Positions 55,840-64,000 of a DNA stretch of 64,000 nucleotides are shown one piece after another. The notes below the pieces were generated by a model that saw only the letters and a list, made by a program, of their open reading frames with translations, was not told the origin of the DNA and made no database searches. The stretch comes from an uncultured Lachnospiraceae bacterium (GTDB lineage: Bacteria; Bacillota; Clostridia; Lachnospirales; Lachnospiraceae), in the NCBI GenBank assembly GCA_949949005.1, contig CATLHM010000009.1:1-64000 (forward strand). The letters run 5' to 3'. The position numbers and the translations under genes were made by a program. Each line of letters starts with the position of its first letter. Position 1 is the first letter of the stretch.

Positions 55840-57144
55840 TCAAAGCAGCGTTCTTGCTTTCCGGGCAAGATACAAAGGAATATTTGTGATGAGTCCGTCC
55901 TTCCGGTAACCACGCTTTGAAAAACGAAGGGCGTGTGCAGGCTGGCAGTCTGCAAGGTATCTCTTGAAGGAAGGTGCGGATTTATCCTCGCCGCCTTTTG
56001 CCTCAACGGGAATGATCTCAGTACTGTATTGCAGTAGGAAGTCGATCTCATGATTCTTGTCGGAAAAATAATGAGGCTCAACCTCAAACTGGGGGCGAAG
56101 CTGCTGTAAGACATAGTTTTCAGTCAAAGGCCCCTTGAACTGATAGTCGGATTTCAAAAGGATCGCACGATTGTCAATACCGGCCATGTGCTTGAGGAGC
56201 CCGGTGTCGAAAAGAAAGAGTTTAAATTGATCCAGCTTATCAAAGGCAGCAAGCGGATGCTCTATTTTAGACACATTGTAGACGCGGCTTAGCATACCGG
56301 CTGACACAAGCCATTCGATCGCTTCCTCAAAGTCCCGGGCTCTGCCTCCCTCACGGACAGCCCCATACATGAACTTTTCGTTGGGCTTGGCAAGCTGGCT
56401 GGCGATACTGCGAAATACCATGAGTATGCGTCCGCTGTTTACCTTCCCGTTGTGCTTGGAGAAGTCATTTTCGTAAACCTCAATCAATTCCCTGTGTATC
56501 TGAAAAATTCTGGATGGATCGCGGTACTTAATCCAGGAAGCCACACATTCGGGCATACCGCCGATGATAAGGTAATAGTTGTACGCTTCAAGAAGGCGGT
56601 TATGGAAAATTTCTTCTATCTGCTGCCCCTTTTGGATACTTTCGTAGTAAGAGTAGAGAGTAGGGACAACGGCGTCAAGAAACTCGTCAAAGGTCAGAGG
56701 GCAGATGGTAAGCAGGTTGACCATGCCTACCGGATAGGACTTAGGCTTTGCAAGAAGTGTGCCAAGCAGGCTCCCGGCGGCAATGACGTGATAGTTGTTT
56801 GCTTTTTCCTTAAAGTACTTGAGTGCATTCAGCGCCTGCGGACATTCCTGAATTTCATCAAAGATGATCAGTGTTTCTTCCGGAAGAATCTTCTCGCCAG
56901 CGATCATGGACAAAAGTTCAAGGATGCGATGAGGATTTTTGTTTGCCTCAAAGACGGATTTCAACTCATCTTCCTCGTCAAAGTTAAAGTAGACAGAGCT
57001 GTTATAGCAGTTCTGGCCGAACTCCTTCATGAGCCATGTCTTGCCAACCTGCCTGGCTCCTTTCAGTATCAGGGGTTTACGTTCTTCGTCGGATTTCCAA
57101 TTTATCAGGTCTTGCATTGCATTGCGTCTCAGGAAAATCACCAT
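55840..57144 (-). CDS. AAA_14/DUF4143 ATP-binding protein (copy 2)
   Basis: The product has about 434 residues if it starts at ATG 57144 (MVIFLRRNAMQDLINWKS); a GTG one codon later has better spacing from AAAGG. Upstream the frame stays open another 73 codons through AT-rich DNA with a TATACT box at about 57167-57172, so the longer form is unlikely. Motifs: P-loop LKGARQVGKTWLMKEF, Walker B LIIFDEIQECPQAL, AAGSLLGTLLA, and the DUF4143 nuclease-like HEIDFLLQYSTEIIPVEAKG. It is related to the gene at 47502 but clearly divergent, so this is not a recent duplication. Confidence 0.85.
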   Translation of the reverse strand: MVIFLRRNAMQDLINWKSDEERKPLILKGARQVGKTWLMKEFGQNCYNSSVYFNFDEEDELKSVFEANKNPHRILELLSMIAGEKILPEETLIIFDEIQECPQALNALKYFKEKANNYHVIAAGSLLGTLLAKPKSYPVGMVNLLTICPLTFDEFLDAVVPTLYSYYESIQKGQQIEEIFHNRLLEAYNYYLIIGGMPECVASWIKYRDPSRIFQIHRELIEVYENDFSKHNGKVNSGRILMVFRSIASQLAKPNEKFMYGAVREGGRARDFEEAIEWLVSAGMLSRVYNVSKIEHPLAAFDKLDQFKLFLFDTGLLKHMAGIDNRAILLKSDYQFKGPLTENYVLQQLRPQFEVEPHYFSDKNHEIDFLLQYSTEIIPVEAKGGEDKSAPSFKRYLADCQPAHALRFSKRGYRKDGLITNIPLYLARKARTLL

Positions 57145-57331
57145 CCTTTCTGAGCGGATGAGAATAGTATAACACGTTTTTACAAGTTTGAAAAATAATT
57201 TTTGCACATTTTTCTGAGAAAATGAAAGAAAAAAACACATTTTTTCAAAATCCATTCTGACCAACCCTATCCATTCCCTATGAACGAGGGATGCCACCCT
57301 TCGCCAGCTATCCTTATGTGAAGCAAAAAGA

Positions 57332-57352
57332 ACATCCCGAAAACCGGGATGT
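57332..57352 (-). terminator. Intrinsic terminator on the minus strand
   Basis: ACATCCCG (57332-57339) and CGGGATGT (57345-57352) form an 8-bp stem with a 5-nt loop. Read on the minus strand it is followed by TTCTTTTT. It lies 27 bp after the stop of the small minus-strand ORF at 57379, supporting that ORF as a transcribed unit. Confidence 0.65.
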
Positions 57353-57378
57353 CCTTCAAACATGTCGTTTACTTTCAG

Positions 57379-57778: not shown

Positions 57779-57808
57779 GAATTGCGCTGATGCGCAGACG
57801 GCTGTGTG

Positions 57809-59665
57809 ATGGATGAAAAGGTTGATGCTGTTATGGGTAAATACGACAGAGAATATGAAGCTTTTCGGATTTTTGAGCAGGTGCGGGATGAGAGAGAAGC
57901 GGATGCCCCCTCCTCTCAGGAAAAGGCCGGGAACCCGGAGCTACCTTTGGAGAGCGAAGTTCCTTTTTACGAAATAGAATATGATGCCTGCCCGTTGCCG
58001 GGAGTGGGTAAATTTGTGCTTAAATCCCAGAAGGTAACGGCGCCTGTGAAGGATGAGGTCAGGGAAAAATTTAACCGGATGCGGGATATTGCCCGAAAGA
58101 ATCAATATCTCTATTACGAGAACTCCCGGTTTTATGACAAAAGGATCCGGCAGGAAAACTCGAAAATCTTTTATGAGCAGGGGAGGTTCATGGAGGACTT
58201 TGAGGATCACTATGAGAAAGAGGCTTCCTTTTCCGCTTACTTTCCCAGCTATCAGATGATGGGATATGAGCAGCTTCGAGCCTATTTTACCTGGCGTACC
58301 AGGCTGCGGCAGGGGGAGATTGCCGATACCTCCACGTCCTATCTTTTTTTGTACCTGTATGAGCTGATTAACCAGATCGGGGTCAGGAATGAGGAGGAAG
58401 GGTTAGAAAAGCTGATGGATTTCTGGCTGGCTTTCAGAGACCGTCAGGGAGGGGTGGGCAGATATGTGCTCCGGTGGCTGAAGGACTATCATATCTATTA
58501 CGAGCTGCCCTGGACGTTCAAAGAGTTTATTGACCAAAACGGACTGAATGCCTACTATCCGGAGCTTACGGATCCGGAGGATAATTTTGAACTCCTCTGT
58601 GGTATCTCAAAATACGATATCAGAAAATCGGTTTTTTATGGGGAAGGGAGAGAGGCCCTGATCAGGGACTGCTTTCGTTTCCTGAATGGCCGTTTAAAGC
58701 AGAGGTTTGGAGAAAAGGGACTGGATCTGGAAGAGCTGATTTTTCAGCCTGCCAAAAATATGCCCCAGTGGACGCCCTTTAAGGACGCCCTGTTTTATCC
58801 CGCAAAGAGGCAGCGGGACAGACGGGTGGTACTTTCCGAAAAGGAAATCTATCTGTGCAGCCAGAATCAATGGACCTTCAATACCACGCTTACCACGGAG
58901 AGCGGAAAGAGGCTGGTGGGCTATATTATGAAGCTGATGGAGTCCGTTCTCAGACAGGTTGCCAAATATAAATACAAGATTTCCGCAGGCAGCTTAAGCC
59001 AGCAGGCGGCGGAGGAACTTGGGAGGGCAGGGATAGACCTGGAAGCGGAAGTGAGGGGGGCTGTGCTGGAATTTTACCGGGAGGCCACCAAAACTGTGGT
59101 TACGGTTGATCCGGACAGACTGCGCCGGATCCGTCAGGAAGCCCAGCAGACCCAGGAAAAGCTTACGGTACCGGAGGAAAATGAGGCTTTTGCATTCCGG
59201 CAGGGTGGAAAGCTCCAGACTGCTCCTGGGCCGTCAAATAAGGAGTCAGAGACGGCTGCGCCTTTTCCCGGTCTGAATCAGGGGCAGGAAAGAAAGCCGG
59301 AACCTAGGGCCCTTGACCCGGAGAGCTTGCAGAAGAACAATCCCTGGCAAGATAATCCCGCCCCGGAGAGCCCACAGAAGAGCAATTCCTGGCAAGATAT
59401 TCCCGAGCCAGACAATCCCTGGCAGAACCTAAAGAATTCCCTGACGCAGACAGAGTGGGAAGGCCTGGGGATTCTATGGAAAAACGGGGATATCAAAACC
59501 TTTGCGGACAGCCGAGAAATCATGTTAGAGGTGTTGGCGGAAGGAATCAACGAGAAAGCCATGGACTGTGTGGGGGACGCTCTTTTGGATCAGGAGCTGG
59601 CCATCTATGAGGATTACAGGGAGCAGGTAGGGGAAATATGCTCCGGCACAAAAAATAAGGAATAA
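57809..59665 (+). CDS. TerB_N/TerB_C domain protein of a three-gene defence-like operon
   Basis: The product has about 618 residues; ATG 57809 is assumed, but no good ribosome-binding site is visible and ATG 57833 is possible. Residues about 110-310 match TerB_N (FSAYFPSYQMMGYEQLRAYF, TWRTRLRQGE, TSYLFLYLYELINQIG). The middle part is helical. A low-complexity linker at about 490-545 contains three versions of NPWQD/NSWQD. The end (about 545-615: WEGLGILWKNGDIKTFADSR, LLDQELAIYEDYREQVGEI) matches TerB_C. TerB-related domains occur in tellurite-resistance and predicted phage or stress systems; their biochemical role is uncertain. The ATPase gene starts 26 bp later. Confidence 0.8.
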   Translation: MDEKVDAVMGKYDREYEAFRIFEQVRDEREADAPSSQEKAGNPELPLESEVPFYEIEYDACPLPGVGKFVLKSQKVTAPVKDEVREKFNRMRDIARKNQYLYYENSRFYDKRIRQENSKIFYEQGRFMEDFEDHYEKEASFSAYFPSYQMMGYEQLRAYFTWRTRLRQGEIADTSTSYLFLYLYELINQIGVRNEEEGLEKLMDFWLAFRDRQGGVGRYVLRWLKDYHIYYELPWTFKEFIDQNGLNAYYPELTDPEDNFELLCGISKYDIRKSVFYGEGREALIRDCFRFLNGRLKQRFGEKGLDLEELIFQPAKNMPQWTPFKDALFYPAKRQRDRRVVLSEKEIYLCSQNQWTFNTTLTTESGKRLVGYIMKLMESVLRQVAKYKYKISAGSLSQQAAEELGRAGIDLEAEVRGAVLEFYREATKTVVTVDPDRLRRIRQEAQQTQEKLTVPEENEAFAFRQGGKLQTAPGPSNKESETAAPFPGLNQGQERKPEPRALDPESLQKNNPWQDNPAPESPQKSNSWQDIPEPDNPWQNLKNSLTQTEWEGLGILWKNGDIKTFADSREIMLEVLAEGINEKAMDCVGDALLDQELAIYEDYREQVGEICSGTKNKE

Positions 59666-59691
59666 ATAAGGAATAAAGGAAGCGGGACGAA

Positions 59692-61014
59692 ATGAGTAAT
59701 CAGGTACCGGTAAGAATCGCGAATATTCTGATCAATGCCCTGAAGGGGGGCGTGGTGCCCAGAGCGGGGCTGGAATATATTACGGTGGGGCGCACCCAGG
59801 AGATTGCCGCTATTTTGCACGACATTGATATGATTGAGGAGGGCGGCGCATCCTTCCGTTTTATTGTGGGTAAATACGGCAGCGGGAAGAGCTTTCTGCT
59901 CCAGACCATCCGCAACCATGCCACAGCCCGGGGCTTTGCGGTGGTGGATGCGGATCTCTCACCGGAGAGACGGTTTGCAGGAACCAAAGGGCAGGGACTG
60001 GCGACTTATAAGGAGCTGATCAAAAATCTTTCCACCAAGGCAAGGCCTGACGGCGGGGCTCTTCCCCTGATCCTGGAAAAATGGATTTCCGGCATTCAAA
60101 CCTCTGTCAAAAGCCGGCATCCGGGCCAGCTTACCCAGGAGGAATTTGACGCCCTGGTAGAGCAGCAGATTTACGGGGTGGCGGGCTCCCTGGAAGGGAT
60201 GGTGAACGGCTTTGAGTTCGCCAGGGCGGTAGTCCTTTACTGGAAAGCCTACAAGAAGGATGACCAGGCCCTTAAGTCCAACGTGCTTCGGTGGTTTCGG
60301 GGAGAATACCCTTCCCGCAGGGAGGCTAAAGAGGATCTTGGGATTAATTTTATCGTCACGGACGAGACCTGGTATGATTTTTTGAAGATACTTGCGTCCT
60401 TCCTGGTTGGGGCAGGCTATAAGGGGCTGCTGGTGATGATCGACGAGCTGGTGAATATTTTCAAGATATCCAATTCCATCACAAGGGCCAATAACTACGA
60501 AAAGATTCTCACTATGTACAACGACGTGCTTCAGGGAAAGGCAAGGCATATCGGCTTTTTGATGGGGGGCACGCCCCAGTGTATCGAGGATAAATATAAA
60601 GGGGTGTTCAGCTATGAAGCCCTGCGCTCCCGGCTCTCGGAGGGGCATTTTGCAACTGCCGATCTGAAAGACTTTTCCGCGCCCATCATCCGGCTGCAAA
60701 TGCTGACCCAGGAGGAAATGTACATTCTTGTGGAGAAGCTTTTGCAGATCCATGCCCAGCTCTATCGCTATACGCCGAAGCTGACCAATGAGGATCTGAT
60801 TTATTTCCTTACGGTGGAGTATAACCGGGTGGGAGCCGAAAGCCATATCACCCCAAGGGAAATTATCCGCGACTTTATTGAGCTGATCAATATTCTCTAC
60901 CAGAATCCCCAAAAGAGTCTTGGGGAAGTCCTAGGAGATAACAGCTTTGAACTGGCTAAGGGCGGGATCCTGGAGGAAGAGATCAGCGACGAGTTCCAGG
61001 ATTTTGAAATCTAA
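59692..61014 (+). CDS. BrxD-like (DUF2791) P-loop ATPase
   Basis: The product has 440 residues. The start NQVPVRIANILINALKGGVV PRAGLEYITVGR is typical of the DUF2791/BrxD group. The P-loop is VGKYGSGKSFLL (K66), and the Walker B is GLLVMIDELVNIFK (D251-E252), followed by FLMGGTPQCIEDK and RLQMLTQEEMYILVEKLLQI. BrxD belongs to type 2 BREX (Pgl) phage-defence loci, where it accompanies an Lhr-like helicase, as here. PglX methyltransferase, PglZ and PglY/W are absent from the window, so this is not a BREX locus as defined. It is co-directional with and close to both neighbours. Confidence 0.85.
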   Translation: MSNQVPVRIANILINALKGGVVPRAGLEYITVGRTQEIAAILHDIDMIEEGGASFRFIVGKYGSGKSFLLQTIRNHATARGFAVVDADLSPERRFAGTKGQGLATYKELIKNLSTKARPDGGALPLILEKWISGIQTSVKSRHPGQLTQEEFDALVEQQIYGVAGSLEGMVNGFEFARAVVLYWKAYKKDDQALKSNVLRWFRGEYPSRREAKEDLGINFIVTDETWYDFLKILASFLVGAGYKGLLVMIDELVNIFKISNSITRANNYEKILTMYNDVLQGKARHIGFLMGGTPQCIEDKYKGVFSYEALRSRLSEGHFATADLKDFSAPIIRLQMLTQEEMYILVEKLLQIHAQLYRYTPKLTNEDLIYFLTVEYNRVGAESHITPREIIRDFIELINILYQNPQKSLGEVLGDNSFELAKGGILEEEISDEFQDFEI

Positions 61015-61094
61015 CTGAGGAAGCAGGGGCGCATGACAGGAAGAAAGGCTTTTCCCCAAGTGCGCATTTGCCGAAAGTAGAAAGGGCTTAAAGA

Positions 61095-63302
61095 ATGATG
61101 AATGCATTTGAAAGACTCTCTCCCTTTATCCAGGACTTTATCTATCGGAATGGGTGGGAGGAGCTTCACGGTAACCAGGTGGCGGCCTGTGAGGTGATTT
61201 TTGACAGCGACGATAATCTGCTGCTGTCCTCGGGCACGGCTTCCGGCAAGACGGAAGCTGCTTTTTTGCCGGTGCTCACAGAGCTTTACGAGCATCCTTC
61301 GGCCTCCGTGGGGGTACTGTATATTTCGCCTCTCAAGGCGCTGATCAATGACCAGTTTAAACGGCTGGATCTTCTGCTGGAGGACTCCAATATCCCGGTG
61401 ACTAAATGGCATGGGGATGCATCTCTGACCCAGAAAAACCGGCTGATGAAGAATCCGGAAGGAGTTTTACAGATCACGCCGGAATCCTTAGAAAGCCTCC
61501 TTACCAACAAGCGGGGGGCTTGCATGAGGATGTTTTCGGATTTGCGCTTTGTGGTGATTGACGAGGTACACAGCTTCATGCGGGATGCCCGGGGCTTACA
61601 GCTATTGTGTGTTTTGGAGAGGCTTAAGAATCTGACAGGGGTTAATCCCAGAAGGGTGGGGTTATCCGCCACCTTGGGGGAAGTGTCCCTTGCAGAGAAC
61701 TGGCTGAATACCGGAACCGGAAGGCAGTGTGCGGCCCCTGTTTTTGACGAGGGGAAGAAGAGGGTGAGGCTTCACATTGAGCGGTTTGTGAATTATGCGG
61801 ATAAGAAGGATTTTATCGAGCGAAACGGCAGCCAGAATGTGGTCAATACCAGCACCGGCGGGGATATTGGCGATCGGGAACACTACGATTATCTTTTTAA
61901 GCAGACCCTGGATAAAAAGACCATTATCTTTGCCAACAGCCGGGAAGAGATTGAGCTTGTGATGGCCCACCTGCGGGAGACGGCCCTGAAAAACAAGGCG
62001 CCGGACATTTACCGGGTGCATCACGGCAATGTGTCGGCGCTGCTGCGGGAAAACACAGAGGATGAGATGAAATCCACGGAGGAAAAGATCGTCACAGGGG
62101 CTACCGTAACCCTGGAGCTGGGGATTGATATCGGCTCTCTTGACCAGGCCGTGCAGATCGGGGCTCCCCTTAACGTGTCCAGCTTTGCCCAAAGGCTGGG
62201 GCGCTGTGGACGCAGGGGCCAGGTTCCCCAGATTCTTTTTACCTTTGTGGAGAGCATCAAGATCAATTCCTCGGATACCCTTGGGCCCATCAACTGGGAG
62301 TTTATACGCACCATTGCCATCATTGAACTTTATCTGCGGGAGCATTGGATCGAGCCCATCCCGCCCCTGAAACACGCCTATAACCTTTTATACCATCAGA
62401 CCATGAGCGTACTTAAAAGCAGTGGGGAAATGTCCCCGGCCGGGCTGGCTCAGGCGGTGCTTTCCCTGGCCTGCTTTCAGGAAATATCCAAGGAGGATTA
62501 CAAAAAGCTTCTGGGCTATCTGATTCATATCGACCAGCTCGAGCGCACCGAGCACGGCGGCCTTGTGATCGGGCGCGCAGGGGAAAAGGTGGTGAACAGC
62601 CACAAATTCCTGACGGTGTTTTTGGCGCCGGAATATCTGCTGGTGAAGGATGAGAACCGCACCATCGGCACGGTGGACAAGGTTTATCCGGTGGGGACGC
62701 GCTTTGCCCTTGCGGGGATGTCCTGGGAGACGGTGGACGTAAACGTGCGCTCCAAGGTGCTCTTTGTCAAGCGGGTACAAGGAATCTCGGCGGTGGACTG
62801 GGATATGGATTTTGAGGTAGATCTGCACACCATACTGGTTCGCAAGATCCGCAGTATTTTGACGGGAGAGGAGGAATATAAGTATTTAAGCCAAAGATGT
62901 GAGGAGCGCCTTGGCGAGATCCGCTATATTGCCCGCAACAGCGGGATTCTGGAGCATTTGGTGACTGCCCTGTCAGATAAAAAATTCGCCGTCTTTCCCT
63001 GGGTGGGAACCAGGCAGCTTACCACGCTCCATTATGCCCTGTTGCAGAGGAAGATAAAGAGCAGGCGGCTTTGGAGCACTACCCTTTATCTGGAAGTCAT
63101 CTTCGGCGGCACGGCCCAGGAATTGGAGGCTATCATCCGGGATATTCTGGGCTCAGACCTGGATCTCTATACGCTGCCTTTGCCCGATAAGATACAGCTT
63201 CGGGGAAAATATAACGAATTTGTTCCTCCGGAGCTTTTGCGCAAGCAGTTTATTGAGGATTATCTGGATTTTGAGGGATTAAAATGTGGGGTTCTGCCTT
63301 AA
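61095..63302 (+). CDS. Lhr/BrxHI-like DEVH-box superfamily 2 helicase
   Basis: The product has 735 residues; AAAGGGC lies 8 bp before ATG 61095. Helicase motifs in order: P-loop SSGTASGKTEAA, ISPLKALINDQ, ITPESLES, DEVH in VVIDEVHSFM, SAT in VGLSATLGEV, TIIFANSREE, TLELGIDIGSLDQAVQIGAP and motif VI SFAQRLGRCGRRGQ. The C-terminal 300 residues are an accessory region (winged-helix/beta) of unknown contacts. Members unwind or translocate on DNA or RNA with ATP. It starts 80 bp after the ATPase gene; the gap has no promoter I trust. Together with the TerB and BrxD-like proteins it probably forms one DNA-processing or defence complex. Confidence 0.85.
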   Translation: MMNAFERLSPFIQDFIYRNGWEELHGNQVAACEVIFDSDDNLLLSSGTASGKTEAAFLPVLTELYEHPSASVGVLYISPLKALINDQFKRLDLLLEDSNIPVTKWHGDASLTQKNRLMKNPEGVLQITPESLESLLTNKRGACMRMFSDLRFVVIDEVHSFMRDARGLQLLCVLERLKNLTGVNPRRVGLSATLGEVSLAENWLNTGTGRQCAAPVFDEGKKRVRLHIERFVNYADKKDFIERNGSQNVVNTSTGGDIGDREHYDYLFKQTLDKKTIIFANSREEIELVMAHLRETALKNKAPDIYRVHHGNVSALLRENTEDEMKSTEEKIVTGATVTLELGIDIGSLDQAVQIGAPLNVSSFAQRLGRCGRRGQVPQILFTFVESIKINSSDTLGPINWEFIRTIAIIELYLREHWIEPIPPLKHAYNLLYHQTMSVLKSSGEMSPAGLAQAVLSLACFQEISKEDYKKLLGYLIHIDQLERTEHGGLVIGRAGEKVVNSHKFLTVFLAPEYLLVKDENRTIGTVDKVYPVGTRFALAGMSWETVDVNVRSKVLFVKRVQGISAVDWDMDFEVDLHTILVRKIRSILTGEEEYKYLSQRCEERLGEIRYIARNSGILEHLVTALSDKKFAVFPWVGTRQLTTLHYALLQRKIKSRRLWSTTLYLEVIFGGTAQELEAIIRDILGSDLDLYTLPLPDKIQLRGKYNEFVPPELLRKQFIEDYLDFEGLKCGVLP

Positions 63303-63476: not shown

Positions 63477-64000
63477 TTACCAATATTGCTTTACCAATTC
63501 GCTGGATTCATTTTCAGTCAGCTGAAACCTTTCCGCGATCCGTTTTATTGTCTCTACCAAAGAGATACCTAAATCTTTATATGTCTCCACCGCACCCTCG
63601 ATCTTGCTTTCTTCTCGCATTTGTTGAATCGCCAAACACATATTCACTTCTCCTTTCCCTTCGGGATATTTCAACTTGGATCCCGTGACAATATTTATTA
63701 CTTCCGCTGCCTGCCGTTCTATGCTTTGAAATTTTATGTTTTCTTTTACAATTTTATCCAGTGTTTGCTTGTCTTTGGAATACTTAATATATAGCATTAC
63801 TTCACGCAAGTTTGAGTGAAACTCATTAATTTCGTCATCCGACATTTCCTTTGGGGCGATCAGGTTCACATGGTAATCCGGTGCATGTGAAAGAATTGCA
63901 TCGTCCACATCGGAATACATTTCTTTTAGGGAGAGCGGCGCATCCCAGCTGTCTGATCCAAAATATATTACAAGGGTGACCACAGGGATAAGGCGGTCTG
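63477..64000 (-). CDS. Rpn-family nuclease, 5' end outside the window
   Basis: The minus-strand frame is open to the window edge and encodes at least 174 residues. RLIPVVTLVIYFGSDSWDAP and LSLKEMYSDVDDAILSHAPD are the middle part of Rpn/transposase_31-type proteins, followed by the usual helical C-terminus (AAEVINIVTGSKLKYPEGKG, ITE-like ending SELVKQYW). The catalytic PD-(D/E)XK half would lie beyond 64000. It differs from the Rpn gene at 38451, which has another C-terminal type. The gap 63303-63476 between the helicase and this convergent gene holds nothing I can name. Confidence 0.8.
   Translation of the reverse strand, partial: DRLIPVVTLVIYFGSDSWDAPLSLKEMYSDVDDAILSHAPDYHVNLIAPKEMSDDEINEFHSNLREVMLYIKYSKDKQTLDKIVKENIKFQSIERQAAEVINIVTGSKLKYPEGKGEVNMCLAIQQMREESKIEGAVETYKDLGISLVETIKRIAERFQLTENESSELVKQYW

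What the first reader, a model, noticed from the sequence alone, without database searches (positions are those of the whole stretch)
57809..63302. Stand-alone TerB - BrxD-like ATPase - Lhr-like helicase operon
Three genes in tight order encode TerB_N/TerB_C, DUF2791 ATPase and DEVH helicase. The last two are the BrxD/BrxHI pair known from type 2 BREX, but no PglX, PglZ, PglW or PglY gene lies in the window. I recall comparative-genomic work on Ter-domain systems predicting such sets; experimental proof is unknown to me. It may be a minimal defence or DNA-processing machine in which the TerB protein replaces the BREX sensor or effector.
Basis: partly seen in the sequence, partly recalled or inferred. 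Interest (0 to 1): 0.75.

Follow-up and report, generated by a model that had tools for sequence, protein, structure and literature searches.

The report
Shango antiphage operon lacking TerB core
This bacterium carries the three genes of Shango, a known anti-phage system, in a version whose first protein lacks the TerB domain found in the E. coli version, and it is predicted to protect the cell by loading a helicase onto phage DNA.

Summary
The three genes (57833-59665, 59692-61014, 61095-63302, + strand) match PADLOC's SngA, SngB and SngC models (E = 3e-66, 2e-179, 1e-220): Shango, shown elsewhere to protect P. aeruginosa from phages (PMC10250203). It is not BREX: SngB misses NCBI's BrxD cut-off (155.8 against 350 bits), 50 SngB rows separate from 6 BrxD rows with 100/100 support, and the genome's BREX-like genes lie on another contig. 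The new part is architecture. SngA here has TerB_N and TerB_C, but no detectable TerB core and no hydrophobic N-terminus; E. coli-type SngA has both. The core-less state marks one side of the SngB tree, which holds nearly all Bacillota sampled. SngA diverges far faster than SngB and SngC (median pairwise identity 45, 83, 79 %). In 8 of 9 genomes tested where sngC is not beside sngB, it sits on another contig. Best reading: a soluble, core-less Shango variant in which an AAA+ loader and a BrxHI-like helicase act on phage DNA under SngA control; the mechanism is inferred.

The parts
57833..59665 (+). sngA, 610 aa (ORF opens at GTG 57806; ATG 57833 is the likelier start)
   Evidence: PADLOC SngA 3.2e-66; start from relatives and upstream AAAAGG
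58097..58597 (+). TerB_N domain of SngA (residues 89-255 of 610)
   Evidence: Pfam PF13208 3.4e-28; AF2 pLDDT mostly above 90
59081..59629 (+). TerB_C match of SngA (residues 417-599), split by the linker
   Evidence: Pfam PF15615 6.5e-13
59174..59413 (+). hypervariable, proline-rich linker of SngA (residues 448-527), predicted disordered
   Evidence: mean pairwise identity 13.4 % over the 910 of 1770 pairs with enough aligned letters; pLDDT under 50 for residues 450-525
59408..59662 (+). C-terminal helical domain of SngA (residues 526-610), weakly winged-helix-like
59692..61014 (+). sngB, 440 aa, BrxD-like AAA+ ATPase
   Evidence: PADLOC SngB 1.7e-179, BrxD 4.8e-45; PF10923 1.3e-158
59869..59892 (+). 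Walker A of SngB (GKYGSGKS, residues 60-67, K66)
   Evidence: K66 in 78 of 78 aligned rows
61095..63302 (+). sngC, 735 aa, Lhr/BrxHI-like superfamily 2 helicase
   Evidence: PADLOC SngC 9.8e-221, BrxHI 3e-118; DEAD and Helicase_C
61233..61253 (+). Walker A of SngC (GTASGKT, residues 47-53)
   Evidence: K52 and T53 in 65 of 65 rows
61560..61571 (+). DEVH box of SngC (residues 156-159)
   Evidence: 65 of 65 rows

Best explanation
The three genes are an open, motif-complete Shango operon (sngA-sngB-sngC) of a lineage whose SngA lacks a detectable TerB core and a hydrophobic N-terminus, and they are predicted to protect the cell from phages by SngB likely loading the SngC helicase onto invading DNA under the control of SngA, which would be the sensing adaptor. 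Shown here: the genes, their families, their intact ATPase and helicase motifs, the architecture of SngA against E. coli-type SngA, the co-occurrence of sngB and sngC, and the fast divergence of SngA. Shown by others: Shango gives P. aeruginosa PAO1 10-100-fold protection on plates against many, not all, phages tested (PMC10250203). Inferred: SngB is an ORC/Cdc6-type ring that loads or activates SngC, as proposed for BrxD and BrxHI (PMC12839542); SngA, the fast-evolving part, meets the phage-dependent cue; with no recognisable nuclease in the operon, harm to the phage would come from unwinding or clearing its DNA, or from a host nuclease acting on the opened DNA.
For: PADLOC SngA/B/C, each as the best family. 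54 of 54 loci with three near-full-length genes keep one strand and the order A-B-C. SngC at E<=1e-100 in 11 of 12 SngB-positive and 0 of 86 other relatives, Fisher p 1e-13. Walker A and DEVH kept. SngA is the least similar protein in 1485 of 1485 locus pairs. TerB-core HMM: 0 of 60 SngA of the close relatives including the window, 0 of 120 database proteins nearest to their profile (the two sets may overlap), 118 of 120 database proteins nearest to E. coli SngA, 38 of which trained the HMM. Hydrophobic N-terminal segment: 37 of 38 E. coli-type rows, 1 of 62 rows of the window-type alignment, that one a fusobacterial plasmid row. Phage assays and the loader proposal come from papers.
Against: No activity was tested for this lineage. 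The published Shango systems seem to be of the TerB-containing kind (a review lists PF05099 for Shango; PA14's own SngA I did not examine). SngA profiles of the two kinds hardly align (hhalign probability 6 %), so SngA might do different jobs in them. The loader step rests on BrxD/BrxHI by analogy. A fast-evolving SngA could also be an effector, or simply under weaker constraint. sngC apart from sngAB is unusual for a defence cassette.
Confidence: 0.6

Rival explanations
1. SngC (with SngB) is the sensor of damaged or replicating phage DNA, and SngA is the effector, released when the helicase engages, as HamB frees HamA in Hachiman.
For: SngC, BrxHI, DruE and DpdJ form a possible defence-helicase clade (PMC12278908, passage). 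SngA is the variable protein and has conserved acidic and basic residues.
Confidence: 0.2
2. In Clostridia the set has been domesticated into chromosomal DNA maintenance and is no longer mainly antiphage.
For: SngB and SngC are slow (83 and 79 % median identity over loci of several families). sngC sits alone between genes that read as recG and gltX in Acetatifactor muris, and beside tilS-, hpt- and ftsH-like genes in another genome (names by eye). sngAB lies near pheS/pheT-like or clpX/clpP-like genes in others (by eye).
Against: Patchy: 4 of 37 genomes of the genus, 23 of 398 of the phylum sample. SngB identity follows CarB identity only weakly (Spearman 0.45, p 0.01; median 85.5 % where CarB >= 88 %, 82.2 % where CarB <= 63 %), as horizontal transfer gives, though the loci were picked by SngB similarity. 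Relatives of SngB or BrxD lie on 692 of 72,556 plasmid records (the count mixes the two families).
Confidence: 0.15
3. A remnant or detached half of type 2 BREX (BrxD-BrxHI) with a TerB gene by chance.
For: Clear homology to BrxD (4.8e-45) and BrxHI (3e-118).
Against: Better matches to SngB and SngC; BrxD curated cut-off missed, 155.8 against 350 bits; SngB and BrxD are separate clades, 100/100; SngA beside SngB in most loci.
Confidence: 0.03
4. The SngA region between TerB_N and TerB_C is a TerB core too diverged to recognise, so there is no architectural variant.
For: Precomputed Pfam annotation misses the core in some SngA 72-73 % identical to E. coli's (P0188, P0189). Three helices (356-418) stand at that place.
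Confidence: 0.12

Closest known systems
Shango (SngABC), as described from P. aeruginosa PA14 and E. coli
   Same: Three genes, order, SngB and SngC families, TerB_N and TerB_C in SngA.
   Different: Here SngA has no detectable TerB core and no hydrophobic N-terminus, but a disordered proline-rich linker; the SngB tree places it in a lineage apart from the core-bearing one.
Type 2 BREX BrxD-BrxHI dyad
   Same: Homologous AAA+ ATPase and Lhr-like helicase, adjacent genes.
   Different: No Pgl genes seen with it; SngB is outside the BrxD clade and under its cut-off.
Hachiman (HamAB)
   Same: A superfamily 2 helicase coupled to a variable partner.
   Different: HamA is a nuclease; none was recognised in SngA. 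SngC and HamB fall apart in that paper's helicase tree (PMC12278908, passage).
Ter systems (TerB_N-TerB-TerB_C proteins)
   Same: TerB_N and TerB_C domains.
   Different: TerB core not detected; other ter genes were not looked for here.

Membership tests
Shango | SngA, SngB and SngC model matches (the PADLOC models) | tested here: met
   3.2e-66, 1.7e-179, 9.8e-221, each the best family
Shango | three adjacent genes on one strand | tested here: met
   gaps of 26 and 80 nt; 54 of 54 near-full-length trios keep the order
Shango | TerB core (PF05099) in SngA: listed for Shango in a review (PMC10952713), not a separate requirement of the detection models, so I treat it as a variable feature | tested here: not met
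   no hit; E. coli SngA as positive control hits at 9.8e-7
Shango | anti-phage activity | not testable with these tools
   Published for other members (PMC10250203)
BREX type 2 | PglX, PglZ, PglW, PglY in the locus | tested here: not met
   None seen by eye among ORFs of 52-64 kb and of the 20 kb from 63001; the only PglZ match of the genome is on contig C1
BREX type 2 | BrxD equivalog (NF033438, 350 bits) | tested here: not met
   155.8 bits; separate clade 100/100
Hachiman | HamA nuclease partner | tested here: inconclusive
   No nuclease family for SngA; fold searches weak
Ter stress-response operon | terC/terD neighbours | not tested
   Not searched

The most novel reading that the evidence does not exclude
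Shango exists in two deep lineages, and the one in this window shows that the TerB core and the membrane anchor are optional: the working machine is a soluble TerB_N/TerB_C adaptor with a hypervariable linker, a BrxD-type loader and a BrxHI-type helicase, and in Clostridia its helicase gene can leave the operon and act in trans, so that operon-based defence finders miss it.
Probability: 0.45. Interest if true: 0.55.

Novelty: new variant of a known kind. Interest (0 to 1): 0.4.

Why it matters
Shango's mechanism is listed as unknown in two papers seen here (PMC12926258, which lists Hachiman there too; PMC10855318; passages), and its TerB domain invites metal-sensing or membrane models. A large natural lineage without that domain and without the hydrophobic N-terminus says that neither can be essential to every Shango, and gives the experiment: compare both kinds, and delete the core from the E. 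coli-type one. The split loci give a natural test of whether SngC needs to be made beside SngAB.

Tried and rejected
BREX reading: rejected. Phage-borne cargo: no SngB relative in 50,697 phage records; the viral-contig scan matched 5 stretches, none confirmed, but its patterns find close relatives only. Empty-site comparison with carB and a flanking methyltransferase-like gene: led nowhere. The two lie about 16 kb apart in the window genome and about 15 kb apart in G020, with Shango between them in both; in three others of the genus (G011, G022, G024) they are about 36-59 kb apart, in the rest on different contigs or without a clear carB match, so no clean insertion was seen. Rooting by BrxD: the TerB-less rows come out on one side with weak support (73/25), so gain or loss of the core is undecided. 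rpoB as a species clock: not found in this incomplete assembly; CarB was used instead: of 50 genomes 8 had no match at E<=1e-200, 9 with only a match of 45-48 % (likely the paralogue) were left out, 33 were used, four of them by the identity of one piece; one at 49 % was kept and may be a paralogue. Spearman was 0.64 for SngA (32), 0.45 for SngB (31) and 0.30, p 0.11, for SngC (29). Promoter and terminator scan: 8 promoter-like sites against 5.1 expected and 15 terminator-like against 7.0, none placed so as to help. hhalign of the two SngA profiles aligned only 55 columns. Fold searches of the window SngA gave no hit at E<=0.001 and only middling winged-helix rows; no TerB structure was listed, which alone proves nothing. 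No PDB chain resembles SngB by sequence at E<=0.001, and SngA gave three chains at E 0.46-0.6 only.

Literature: in the listings and passages seen from searches no paper described an SngA without TerB core or a dispersed sngC; the papers that named the system (Millman 2022) and predicted Ter-DNA-processing sets (Anantharaman 2012), both recalled, are not held, so print priority is open.

Biases: the 80 loci were picked by SngB peptide patterns and similarity, which lifts SngB identity (SngC and SngA were not picked). The phylum sample is of the window's own phylum, so 'Bacillota lineage' is bound to that sampling. In one search the HMM was trained on 38 of the 120 E. coli-type proteins and on all 6 plasmid positives. 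Most of the 80 loci are titled as metagenome bins.
Full report
The observation. Three ORFs on the + strand, 57806-59665 (start more likely ATG 57833), 59692-61014 and 61095-63302, are open, close together (26 and 80 nt apart), and the second and third are preceded by ribosome-binding-like sequences. Pfam gives TerB_N and TerB_C, BrxC_BrxD, and DEAD plus Helicase_C. PADLOC names them SngA (3.2e-66), SngB (1.7e-179) and SngC (9.8e-221), each ahead of any other family; BrxD and BrxHI come second at 4.8e-45 and 3e-118. This is Shango. In PMC10250203 (passages) the three-gene PA14 operon (TerB-like, ATPase, DEAD/DEAH helicase) gave 10-100-fold protection to PAO1 against many, not all, phages, and the paper cites an E. 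coli Shango with about 10-fold effect on two phages.

Not BREX. NCBI's BrxD model scores 155.8 bits against a cut-off of 350. In a tree of 50 SngB and 6 BrxD rows the two are separated with 100/100 support on a long branch. The own genome does hold BREX-like genes (the end of a BrxC, PglX, PglZ, with an AriA/HEC-01A-like ATPase gene and a 275-aa ORF between PglX and PglZ), but on contig C1, whereas the window is on C9. PF10923 has one match in the genome, the window's own.

Co-occurrence. Among 98 relatives, SngB at E<=1e-90 occurs in 12 (4 of 37 in the genus) and SngC at E<=1e-100 in 11 of those 12 and in 0 of the other 86 (Fisher p 1e-13). G074, the twelfth, has a SngC-like gene at about 34-38 % identity beside SngB. 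Of 91 loci around SngB relatives (at most 88 genomes) 77 show all three, 8 lack SngC nearby, 3 lack SngA and 3 have SngB alone, some of them short or cut by contig ends. In 54 with three near-full-length genes, 54 keep strand and order; 47 have an A-B gap of at most 60 nt and 42 a B-C gap of at most 100 nt. Eleven of the 91 loci lack SngC beside SngB. Eight were searched genome-wide: 7 carry a full-length SngC (74-83 % identical to the window's) on another contig, 1 (L078) has none. A ninth (L011, G085) has SngB on C22 and SngC on C47. The other two (L040, L093) lie on contigs that end 1.8 and 0.14 kb behind sngB and were not searched. None of the seven fetched SngC regions holds SngA or SngB (in one, L155, sngC lies about 0.4 kb from the contig's end). 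In the isolate Acetatifactor muris DSM 23669, SngC lies between genes that read as recG and gltX (names by eye from the first residues).

SngA architecture. Window SngA has TerB_N (residues 89-255) and TerB_C (417-599) but no PF05099. The 120 listed of 848 relatives found by profile carry only TerB_N and TerB_C in the database's precomputed annotation. The E. coli SngA (strain A33) has TerB_N 98-309, TerB 519-624 and TerB_C 644-768. SngA on plasmids of Sulfitobacter, Mesorhizobium, Azospirillum and Cetobacterium has a TerB hit above Pfam's cut-off; Halocatena's is just under it (24.3 against 24.4 bits), Moraxella's is weak (E 0.0091), and the two Paenibacillus ones have none. To be less dependent on Pfam's sensitivity I built an HMM from SngA's own TerB cores. 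It finds 0 of 60 SngA of the window's close relatives (window included), 0 of 120 database proteins nearest to them, 0 of 2 Paenibacillus plasmid SngA, 1 of 27 SngA from the phylum and order samples, and 118 of 120 database proteins nearest to E. coli SngA, the 2 misses being fragments of 427 and 451 aa (38 of these 120 and 6 plasmid positives trained it). The one exception, L125, also carries an SngB of the core-bearing side. In the SngB tree the 8 rows whose SngA has a core are one side of a single branch (100/99, 200 of 200 bootstrap trees). With BrxD as outgroup the support for that group falls to 94/62 (92 % of 200 bootstrap trees), and gain against loss is unresolved. A hydrophobic N-terminal segment (17-residue mean of at least 1.8) is present in 37 of 38 E. 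coli-type SngA and in 1 of 62 rows of the window-type alignment. Of the phylum rows without core, L126 passes that mark and L120, L127 and L123 come near it (1.79, 1.75, 1.56), and two rows of that set carry a TM2 domain, so core and anchor do not always go together. Halocatena, Mesorhizobium, Moraxella and Azospirillum SngA have a core but no such segment as annotated.

Rates. Over 1485 pairs of 55 loci (window included) the median identities are SngA 44.6, SngB 82.7 and SngC 79.0 %, and SngA is lowest in all 1485. Within SngA the linker (13 %) and N-terminal tail (21 %) vary most; TerB_N (53 %), the start of TerB_C (61 %) and the C-terminal domain (52 %) are kept. SngB identity to the window falls little when CarB identity drops from at least 88 to at most 63 % (medians 85.5 of 10 and 82.2 of 14 genomes; Spearman 0.45, p 0.01, 31 genomes). 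This fits horizontal spread, with the caveat that loci were picked by SngB.

Mechanism. Kept Walker A and DEVH motifs suggest that both ATPases work. PMC12839542 (12 of 14 places seen) proposes that BrxD, an ORC/Cdc6-type ATPase, loads or activates BrxHI on target DNA; its held main text has no occurrence of Shango or TerB. PMC12278908 (passages) groups SngC with BrxHI, DruE and DpdJ. I take the same loader-helicase step for SngB and SngC and give SngA the sensing role, because it diverges fastest and is the part that differs between lineages. That is inference. No nuclease domain was hit in the three proteins by Pfam (one weak Cas3-like helicase C-terminal match in SngC), so how the phage is stopped is open.

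Verdict. The architectural variant is well supported; its functional meaning is not tested.

Noticed in passing
G000 contig C1, about 85000-94840 (L096 23-9839): BREX-like genes of the same genome: end of BrxC, PglX (1291 aa), an AriA/HEC-01A-like ATPase and a 275-aa ORF before PglZ.
   Followed up: partly
window 55840-57363 (-): AAA_14/DUF4143 ATPase matching PADLOC candidate PDC-S01 (5e-164), just upstream of sngA on the other strand.
   Followed up: no
window 63477-64000 and on (L002 477-1469, -): Protein of 330 aa with a PF04754 (YhgA-like) match just downstream of sngC, on the other strand; no PADLOC hit.
   Followed up: no
L150-L156: sngC standing alone on another contig than sngB in seven clostridial genomes.
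   Followed up: yes
L112, L113, L102: SngA ORFs with very long N-terminal extensions (1431, 1230 and 1052 aa in all); two SngA rows of the phylum sample carry a TM2 domain.
   Followed up: no
L103 1-1828, L105 1-1472: A helicase gene upstream of Shango on Halocatena and Azospirillum plasmids; PA14 is described to have a large helicase gene there too.
   Followed up: no
L019, L041, L058, L079, L085: Stretches of 0.8-3.9 kb, with extra ORFs, between sngB and sngC.
   Followed up: no
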